This document shows positions 50,183 to 51,150 of a stretch of DNA of 64,000 nt, in pieces. This DNA is from Dictyophora rubrovolvata (taxonomy: Eukaryota; Basidiomycota; Agaricomycetes; Phallales; Phallaceae). The stretch is from positions 496,001 through 560,000 of the forward strand of contig CP114118.1 of assembly GCA_029959195.1 (NCBI GenBank), given 5' to 3'. The position numbers were made by a program, and so were the translations under genes. Each line of letters begins with the position of its first letter. Positions within the stretch are counted from its first letter, which is position 1. The notes below the pieces were generated by a model. That model saw only the letters and a list, made by a program, of their open reading frames with translations, made no database searches and was not told the origin of the DNA.

Positions 50183-50863
50183 TTAAGCATGGTGGTGGTG
50201 ACGGTGGTGACGAGCGTCGGCTTCATCGTTATCAAGCTCACGGACGTGGTGGTGATGGTGGTGATGTTTTGCGTCGTCCTCAAGCTCACGAGCGTGGTGG
50301 TGGTGGTGGTGATGGTGCTTGGCATCGTCCTCAAGTTCACGAGCATGGTGGTGGTGGCGGTGATGCTTAGCATCGTCCTCAAGCTCACGGGCATGATGAT
50401 GATGGTGGCGATGCTTGGCATCGTCCTCAAGCTCCCGAGCATGGTGGTGGTGGTGGTGGTGATGCTTAGCATCATCTTCCAGTTCACGAGGATGATGATG
50501 ACGGTGGTGACGGACATCGCTTTCGACATCGTCAAGTTCACGAGCATGATGATGATGGTGATGATGAACCTTGTCGTCATCCTCGAGCTCACGAGCGTGA
50601 TGATGACGGTGGCGATGAATGTCACTTTCGTCCTCCTCAAGCTCACGAGCGTGGTGAGGGCGGTGGTGGTGGTGGATATCAGGTATCTCGCCGACTTCAC
50701 GAGCATGATGATGGTGATGGTGATGATCCCTGACATCATCCTGGAGCTCACGAGCATGGTGGTGATGATGAGGGTGATGAGCTTTATCATTTTCAAGCTC
50801 AAGGGGAACAGCTAGAACAGCTGCAGCAGAGATGAGAGCGAGAAGGGAGACGAAGCGGACCAT
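50183..50863 (-). CDS. secreted histidine-rich tandem-repeat protein with a xylanase-type leader
   Basis: One uninterrupted frame of 226 residues starts at 50863 ([20 protein letters not shown]); a further in-frame Met at 50911 lies beyond the homologous start of the xylanase and near the TATA, so 50863 is preferred. Residues 1-18 form a signal peptide. The mature part is about twelve imperfect repeats of 15-20 residues, each a run of 5-8 His broken by Arg, followed by ARELEDDAK or a near variant (ARELEEDES, ARELDDVES). Around 78 residues are His, and acidic linkers alternate with the His runs. Four central units are almost identical. There are no cysteines and no catalytic domain. Such His runs bind Zn, Ni or Cu, so an extracellular or wall-associated metal- or pH-responsive role is plausible but unproven. 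Leader and promoter match the GH11 xylanase gene 5 kb away. Confidence 0.88.
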   Translation of the reverse strand: MVRFVSLLALISAAAVLAVPLELENDKAHHPHHHHHARELQDDVRDHHHHHHHAREVGEIPDIHHHHRPHHARELEEDESDIHRHRHHHARELEDDDKVHHHHHHHARELDDVESDVRHHRHHHPRELEDDAKHHHHHHHHARELEDDAKHRHHHHHARELEDDAKHHRHHHHARELEDDAKHHHHHHHHARELEDDAKHHHHHHHVRELDNDEADARHHRHHHHA

Positions 50864-51150
50864 GATGCTCAAGAGTAAGTCGCAAAGTTCAAATGAACCT
50901 GACTGAATCAATAATTGTCGCGTTTGAACCTCCTTATATGCAGATGTTACCGGGAGAATTCCGGTGTATGCACTGGAGCGAAATGTTGACGTGTATTGTA
51001 TCCACTAAACCACAAGAACAAATACGGATAATTGCATATTTCATCTAACCTTACGTCGACTCCCGTTGGAAATTATTTGAAGTCTCTGGAACAATCTCTG
51101 ACATTGGACGGGTTCCAATTAATTTGGGGTGGTCTTATGATCGGTGATTT
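50864..51150 (-). promoter_or_regulatory. promoter of the histidine-rich gene, homologous to the xylanase promoter
   Basis: A TATA-like CATATAAGG (minus strand, about 50932-50940) lies 70-77 bases before the ATG. Immediately upstream is GTTACCGG-N7-CCGG (50946-50964 as read on plus), also present with identical spacing in the xylanase promoter. Further matches are TTGACGTG (about 50987), the AGTCTCTGGA-like block near 51080 and TCTTATGATC at 51133-51142. Confidence 0.75.

What the first reader, a model, noticed from the sequence alone, without database searches (positions are those of the whole stretch)
50183..51150. Histidine-rich secreted protein built on a duplicated xylanase promoter and signal peptide
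The first 22 residues of the histidine-rich protein and of the GH11 xylanase differ at one position. In DNA I count 57 of 66 identical bases with 8 of the 9 differences synonymous, and homology continues upstream through the TATA region and promoter for about 280 bases. Downstream of residue ~25 there is no similarity: one gene is a xylanase with introns, the other an intronless block of about twelve His-rich repeats. The synonymous bias says the leader stayed under selection after duplication, so the gene is probably expressed and secreted. A new secreted protein made by placing a repeat body behind an enzyme's expression and export module is, to my knowledge, not a described family.
Basis: partly seen in the sequence, partly recalled or inferred. 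Interest (0 to 1): 0.9.

Follow-up and report, generated by a model that had tools for sequence, protein, structure and literature searches.

The report
Histidine-repeat gene born from xylanase duplicate
In what looks like a mushroom-group fungus, a spare copy of a plant-fibre-digesting enzyme gene seems to have kept its switch and export tag but exchanged its enzyme part for twelve histidine-rich repeats, a route to a new secreted protein best known from fish antifreeze genes.

Summary
The His-rich ORF (50183-50863, minus) and the GH11-CBM1 xylanase (54908-55880, minus) share 57/66 leader bases; 8 of 9 differences are synonymous. Similarity runs about 300-390 bp upstream, then in collinear blocks through a neighbouring aldo-keto reductase (AKR) gene. 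So the His-rich gene sits in the xylanase slot of a tandem duplicate block (period about 4.7-5 kb) whose AKR is disrupted. In that decaying block the His-rich repeats differ from one another mainly at silent positions (linker pN 0.14, pS 0.60), so the body has been maintained as protein. The array seems to begin in xylanase-derived sequence: unit 0 aligns with the xylanase propeptide (P 0.0002 by shuffling; weaker further in; one local test failed). Best reading: tandem duplication, promoter and signal peptide kept, enzyme body lost, a propeptide segment amplified, as described for notothenioid antifreeze glycoprotein from trypsinogen. Likely product: a secreted, pH-responsive metal-binding polymer (inferred). 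Fungal relatives could not be sought: the window's genome is not held and no fungal collection was available. Expression is untested.

The parts
50183..50863 (-). CDS of the His-rich repeat protein, 226 aa plus stop, no intron in the ORF
50798..50863 (-). Leader codons 1-22 (signal peptide, about residues 1-18, plus VPLE), shared with the xylanase
   Evidence: 57/66 bases, 8 of 9 differences synonymous; signal peptide and cleavage site judged by eye, no predictor run
50756..50806 (-). Repeat unit 0 (PLELENDKAHHPHHHHH), aligned with the xylanase propeptide; overlaps the last three leader codons
50186..50755 (-). Repeat units 1-11, consensus linker ARELEDD(AK) plus His tract
   Evidence: tandem array called
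50864..51177 (-). Upstream (promoter) region similar to that of the xylanase; TATA at -75 and CGG-N7-CCG at -100
52059..52164 (-). Further collinear upstream block, matches 56764-56869
   Evidence: 69% over 107 columns
52725..54300 (-). Aldo-keto reductase relic of the same block: 444 bases of AKR1 missing in one gap, small indels and stops in the rest
54908..55880 (-). GH11-CBM1 xylanase, 288 aa, two predicted introns (55551-55605, 54934-54984), propeptide ending in Arg34-Arg35
   Evidence: gene model; Pfam PF00457 E 1.2e-73 and PF00734 E 1.5e-12; dibasic site
55881..56184 (-). Xylanase upstream region, paralogous to that of the His-rich gene; TATAAA at -74, CGG-N7-CCG at -97
57404..59207 (-). 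Aldo-keto reductase 1, partner gene of the xylanase block (full gene model not built)
   Evidence: Pfam PF00248 on one ORF piece
60365..62186 (-). Aldo-keto reductase 2, further tandem copy (full gene model not built)

Best explanation
A block holding a GH11-CBM1 xylanase and an aldo-keto reductase was duplicated in tandem (shown by collinear matches). In one copy the reductase decayed (shown) and the enzyme part of the xylanase is gone (no similarity found), while promoter region and signal peptide were kept (shown). A short stretch at the signal peptide/propeptide junction (PLE...HLAR in the xylanase) was extended with histidine codons and amplified in frame to twelve units of 16-20 residues (supported by alignment, not proven). 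The Kex2-type Arg-Arg site is absent (shown), so the repeats should stay in one chain (inferred). The body has been kept by purifying selection (inferred from the excess of silent differences between repeats). The protein is probably made when the xylanase is made and exported by the same route (inferred), and works outside the cell as a pH-responsive binder of divalent metal ions, since 78 of 208 residues after the signal peptide are His, alternating with acidic linkers (composition shown, activity inferred).
For: Leader and upstream paralogy. Five collinear blocks at offsets 4.67-5.02 kb, three of them in the AKR neighbour. AKR relic 727/1269 identical to AKR1, against 1186/1761 between AKR1 and AKR2; of 11 AKR1 exon segments, 2 are missing from the relic, the other 9 all carry indels and 4 of them carry 5 stops in all, whereas AKR2 has 0 stops in 11 and indels in 3. 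Codon-position variation between repeat units.118/.090/.453 in linkers.000/.189/.420 in His tracts; in the 85 tract codons examined C/T at position 1 is 85/0 and at position 3 is 46/39. Unit 0 linker matches the repeat consensus at 15/21 bases, reached by 0 of 4002 control windows; xylanase codons 20-26 match at 12/21, P 0.012 (0.003 by mean over units). Propeptide (codons 23-36) against codons 23-40: P 0.0002 by shuffling (1 of 5000, either sequence shuffled), 0 of 3922 coding windows, 3 of 15860 windows of other, mostly unannotated DNA. Charge computed with textbook pKa: about +53 at pH 5, -16 at pH 7.
Against: The propeptide signal weakens beyond the junction: from codon 26 P 0.003-0.004, from codon 28 P 0.035-0.043 in global mode; in local mode P 0.02 from codon 23 and 0.34 from codon 26. 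The alignments need several gaps, and several variants were tried without correction. No significant 3' flank similarity to the xylanase (P 0.06). Relic identity to AKR2 (592/1206) is within the shuffle range. No RNA, proteome or metal data. The direction (xylanase first) is inferred from GH11 being a widespread enzyme family. Selection is a long-term average and would not reveal recent loss.
Confidence: 0.55

Rival explanations
1. Fusion: a pre-existing His-rich repeat sequence was recombined behind the leader of the duplicated xylanase.
For: No similarity of the body to the xylanase beyond the short linker and no significant 3' similarity; propeptide signal weak beyond codon 28 and absent in one local test.
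Against: Unit 0 straddles the junction and belongs to the repeat family (0 of 4002 windows), and the propeptide aligns through it. BLASTN of the locus against the whole window, low-complexity filter on, found no second copy of the repeat outside the array.
Confidence: 0.3
2. The body is a neutral microsatellite-like expansion in a dead xylanase copy, open by chance and without a protein function.
For: Two other frames of the repeat are open as well; the neighbouring AKR copy is disrupted and an ALDH fragment lies on the other side.
Against: Strong excess of third-position differences in the leader and in both parts of the repeat unit; frames shifted by 1 or 2 show the opposite pattern; upstream region still alignable over 300 bp or more.
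Confidence: 0.07
3. The gene is real, but its role is not metal binding: a host-interaction or antimicrobial protein, or a pH-triggered adhesive or condensate on hyphae.
For: His/Ala-rich DELD proteins of a root endophyte: 17 showed increased expression during symbiosis (PMC3192844, passages); the computed charge changes sign between pH 6 and 6.5.
Against: None direct; not exclusive with metal binding.
Confidence: 0.35
4. The shared leader is a common leader of many secreted proteins of this fungus and says nothing about the xylanase.
For: The genome is not held, so other copies could not be sought.
Against: Collinear AKR blocks place both genes in duplicate segments; tblastn of the leaders against the window gives only these two places at E below 0.1.
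Confidence: 0.04

Closest known systems
Notothenioid antifreeze glycoprotein gene from trypsinogen
   Same: A derivative of a secreted enzyme gene keeps the exon that encodes the signal peptide and amplifies a short own segment (9 bp) into a repeat protein (passages of PMC9122973 and PMC3855684; the 1997 original is not held).
   Different: Here the parent is a fungal xylanase, the candidate segment is the propeptide, the product is His-rich, and no significant 3' similarity was found.
Flounder type I AFP from Gig2
   Same: Shared upstream DNA, and a proposed loss of coding sequence with amplification of a short segment (PMC9122973 passages).
   Different: There the signal peptide of the circulating forms arose later from a non-coding exon and similarity resumes 3' of the coding region; here the leader is inherited and no 3' similarity is significant.
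DELD / Dld1 proteins of Piriformospora (Serendipita) indica
   Same: Small secreted His-rich proteins without Cys in a root-associated basidiomycete (PMC3192844 passages); a review table lists Dld1 under fungal metal ion homeostasis (PMC9610748 passage; the primary paper was not seen).
   Different: DELD proteins are 101-135 aa, with regular His and Ala and C-terminal RSIDELD; this one is 226 aa with ARELEDDAK-His repeats and C-terminus HHRHHHHA.
Kex2-processed repeat proteins (KEPs)
   Same: Signal peptide followed by tandem repeats.
   Different: No dibasic pair anywhere in this protein; the KEP survey required repeats between KR/KK/RK/RR sites (PMC7329392 passages).
Fungal zincophores Pra1 / Aspf2
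   Same: Secreted zinc-binding fungal proteins (search listing with starts of abstracts only).
   Different: Not built of His-tract repeats, to my knowledge (recalled); no sequence comparison was made.

Membership tests
AFGP-type gene birth (works like) | Parent gene duplicated | tested here: met
AFGP-type gene birth (works like) | Signal peptide of the parent inherited (here with upstream region) | tested here: met
AFGP-type gene birth (works like) | Repeat amplified from a segment of the parent | tested here: inconclusive
   P 0.0002 for codons 23-40, 0.035-0.043 from codon 28, 0.34 from codon 26 in a local test
AFGP-type gene birth (works like) | 3' end of the parent retained (feature recalled) | tested here: inconclusive
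   P 0.06
DELD proteins | C-terminal RSIDELD | tested here: not met
   C-terminus HHRHHHHA; definition
DELD proteins | 101-135 aa | tested here: not met
   226 aa; definition
KEPs | At least 3 repeats between Kex2 dibasic sites | tested here: not met
   no dibasic pair; definition
GH11 xylanase | GH11 domain | tested here: not met
   no Pfam family up to E 1; the xylanase paralogue scores E 1.2e-73
Secreted metal-binding protein | Binds divalent metals | not testable with these tools
   composition only

The most novel reading that the evidence does not exclude
A fungal instance of antifreeze-type gene birth: a duplicated secreted xylanase discarded its enzyme and amplified its own propeptide into a His-rich polymer that is co-regulated with plant cell wall degrading enzymes and buffers metals (copper, iron, zinc) or pH where they act.
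Probability: 0.3. Interest if true: 0.85.

Novelty: new variant of a known kind. Interest (0 to 1): 0.62.

Why it matters
Cases in which parent and offspring still lie side by side after a secreted enzyme gene became a repeat protein are few, to my knowledge. Here the parent, the offspring and a decaying neighbour that serves as a yardstick lie within about 10 kb, so the steps can be ordered and tested in related species. It would also tie a His-rich secreted protein to the control of biomass-degrading enzymes.

Tried and rejected
No Pfam or NCBIfam family up to E 1 for the His-rich protein; no PDB sequence relative at E 0.01. Relatives in the prokaryote genome and viral contig collections: 584 and 442 stretches held a peptide pattern, none was a relative by tblastn at E 1e-3; a degenerate DNA pattern for RELEDDAKHH found 0 and 0. 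Structure: single-sequence AlphaFold2 model, mean pLDDT 65, a helix at 127-223 with block means 75-85 for residues 141-220; too weak to use, and no fold search was run. Similarity of the body to the xylanase body: none found. AKR relic to AKR2: 592/1206, within the range of three shuffles (0.43-0.50; the shuffles were aligned pairwise with AKR1, the relic in a three-way alignment), so only the match to AKR1 is informative there. In drafting I had written that the relic's fragments lie in different frames and that about 500 bp are missing; a recheck replaced this by counts of indels and stops and a gap of 444 AKR1 bases. Whether the ALDH fragment at 49056-49482 is out of frame was not established, because introns of the ALDH genes were not modelled. 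Regulator: the CGG-N7-CCG site is a lead only; no control for its chance occurrence was run. Passages of PMC12997857 say that Ace3/Roc1-type factors are expected to recognise CGG triplets and that direct binding to promoters is still to be demonstrated. DELD and KEP membership rejected. Paper searches that could have shown a xylanase-derived His-rich gene or a like fungal gene birth listed nothing I recognised as such; I saw listings with starts of abstracts (capped), and many papers are not held.

Full report
Observation. The ORF at 50183-50863 (minus) encodes 226 residues: a 22-residue leader, then repeats. Against the xylanase leader, 57 of 66 bases are identical; 8 of the 9 differences are synonymous and one is Val/Ala at position 5. 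Nei-Gojobori counts give Ks 0.59 and Ka 0.022 (Fisher P 1.1e-4).

Extent of the duplication. BLASTN of the two loci gives one main match of 389-392 columns at 67-68% identity, which spans about 80 leader bases and 301-314 bp upstream of the ATG; a looser local alignment reaches 394 bp upstream. A self-comparison of 43-64 kb shows five direct, collinear matches with offsets of 4.67 to 5.02 kb: leader and promoter, a block about 1.2 kb upstream, and three blocks that fall in an aldo-keto reductase gene. The order is His-rich gene, AKR relic, xylanase, AKR1, AKR2, all on the minus strand. So the His-rich gene lies in the xylanase slot of a tandem duplicate. The xylanase model (two introns of 55 and 51 bp, 288 aa) carries full-length GH11 and CBM1 matches.

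Decay next door. By tblastx only a few short pieces of the AKR copy in the His-rich block are still recognisable. In a three-way alignment it is 727/1269 identical to AKR1, against 1186/1761 for AKR1-AKR2. Of 11 exon segments of AKR1, two fall in a gap of 444 AKR1 bases, the other nine all have insertions or deletions in the relic, and four of these hold five stops in the AKR1 frame; AKR2, the control, has no stop in 11 segments and indels in three. Three shuffles aligned to AKR1 at 43-50%, and the relic's identity to AKR2 (592/1206) is no better than that; the case for descent rests on the BLAST matches and on AKR1. On the other side of the His-rich gene a fragment at 49056-49482 matches an ALDH gene at 67% over 433 columns; its frame was not established.

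Selection on the body. I split the protein at [APV]RE[LV] into 11 units and a unit 0 (Pro20-His36). Among units 1-11 the seven linker codons give pS 0.60 and pN 0.14; variation by codon position is .118.090.453. In the last seven codons of the His tracts it is .000.189.420. Of 85 tract codons, none has T at position 1, while 39 have T at position 3, so the same C/T change is seen where it is silent and not where it would turn His into Tyr. Pairs of units are not independent, so I give no P value for these. Frames shifted by 1 or 2 show the opposite pattern (pS 0.06-0.07, pN 0.24-0.28). Openness of the frame is weak evidence because two other frames are open too.

Origin of the repeat. Unit 0 starts at Pro20, inside the shared leader. 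Its first seven codons match the consensus of units 1-11 at 15 of 21 bases, above all 4002 in-frame control windows, taken from the xylanase outside its leader region and from eight other ORF stretches of the window; the xylanase's own codons 20-26 match at 12 of 21 (P 0.012; 0.003 by mean over units). A global alignment of xylanase codons 23-36 to codons 23-40 of the His-rich gene scores above all 3922 coding windows; 3 of 15860 windows from six stretches of other DNA reach it (called intergenic in the script but not annotated, and two stretches overlap), and 1 of 5000 shuffles does. Starting at codon 26 gives P 0.003-0.004, at codon 28 P 0.035-0.043. Local-mode tests gave P 0.02 from codon 23 and 0.34 from codon 26. 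That the propeptide was the seed is therefore likely but not settled; the window choice was mine, and no correction was made for the variants tried.

What is absent. No similarity of the body to the enzyme was found and none significant between the 3' flanks (P 0.06). The Arg-Arg site that ends the xylanase propeptide has no counterpart; the His-rich protein has no dibasic pair, no Cys and no N-glycosylation sequon.

Promoter. The genes have TATA at -75 and TATAAA at -74, and CGG-N7-CCG at -100 and -97, among 257 of 363 identical aligned bases; the seven spacer bases differ in part. Zn(II)2Cys6 factors of the Ace3/Roc1 group affect xylanase genes in two basidiomycetes, while direct promoter binding is not yet shown (passages of PMC12997857). 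Co-regulation is a hypothesis.

Function. After residue 18 there are 78 His in 208 residues, 51 acidic residues and 28 Arg or Lys; computed charge is about +53 at pH 5, +16 at pH 6 and -16 at pH 7. His tracts bind divalent metals (general knowledge). A secreted metal- and pH-responsive polymer is the simplest guess. The structure model is too weak to help.

Known parallels. Fish antifreeze genes show the same route: for the notothenioid AFGP a 9 bp segment of trypsinogen was amplified and the exon with the signal peptide kept (passages of PMC9122973 and PMC3855684). Gain of promoter elements and of a signal peptide in effector birth is known in nematodes (PMC5919673, passages with part of the abstract). 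I saw no fungal case in my searches, whose capped listings come from an open-licence library.

Limits. The genome is not held, so other copies of leader or repeat could not be sought.

Noticed in passing
44018-46128, 46483-48628, 49056-49482: Tandem aldehyde dehydrogenase genes (66% identical DNA) and a third ALDH-like fragment of about 430 bp beside the His-rich gene.
   Followed up: partly
57404-59207 and 60365-62186: Two tandem aldo-keto reductase genes; Ks about 1.57 over 301 codons of matched segments, larger than the leader's 0.59 over only 22 codons.
   Followed up: partly
56489-56541: 15-bp tandem repeat, 3.5 copies, upstream of the xylanase; no array was called in 50864-56488.
   Followed up: no
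32882-35491: ORF with a DUF6535 domain (E 4.1e-44).
   Followed up: no
50125-50812: Open frames of 229 codons on both strands across the repeat array, most likely by-products of the repeat.
   Followed up: no
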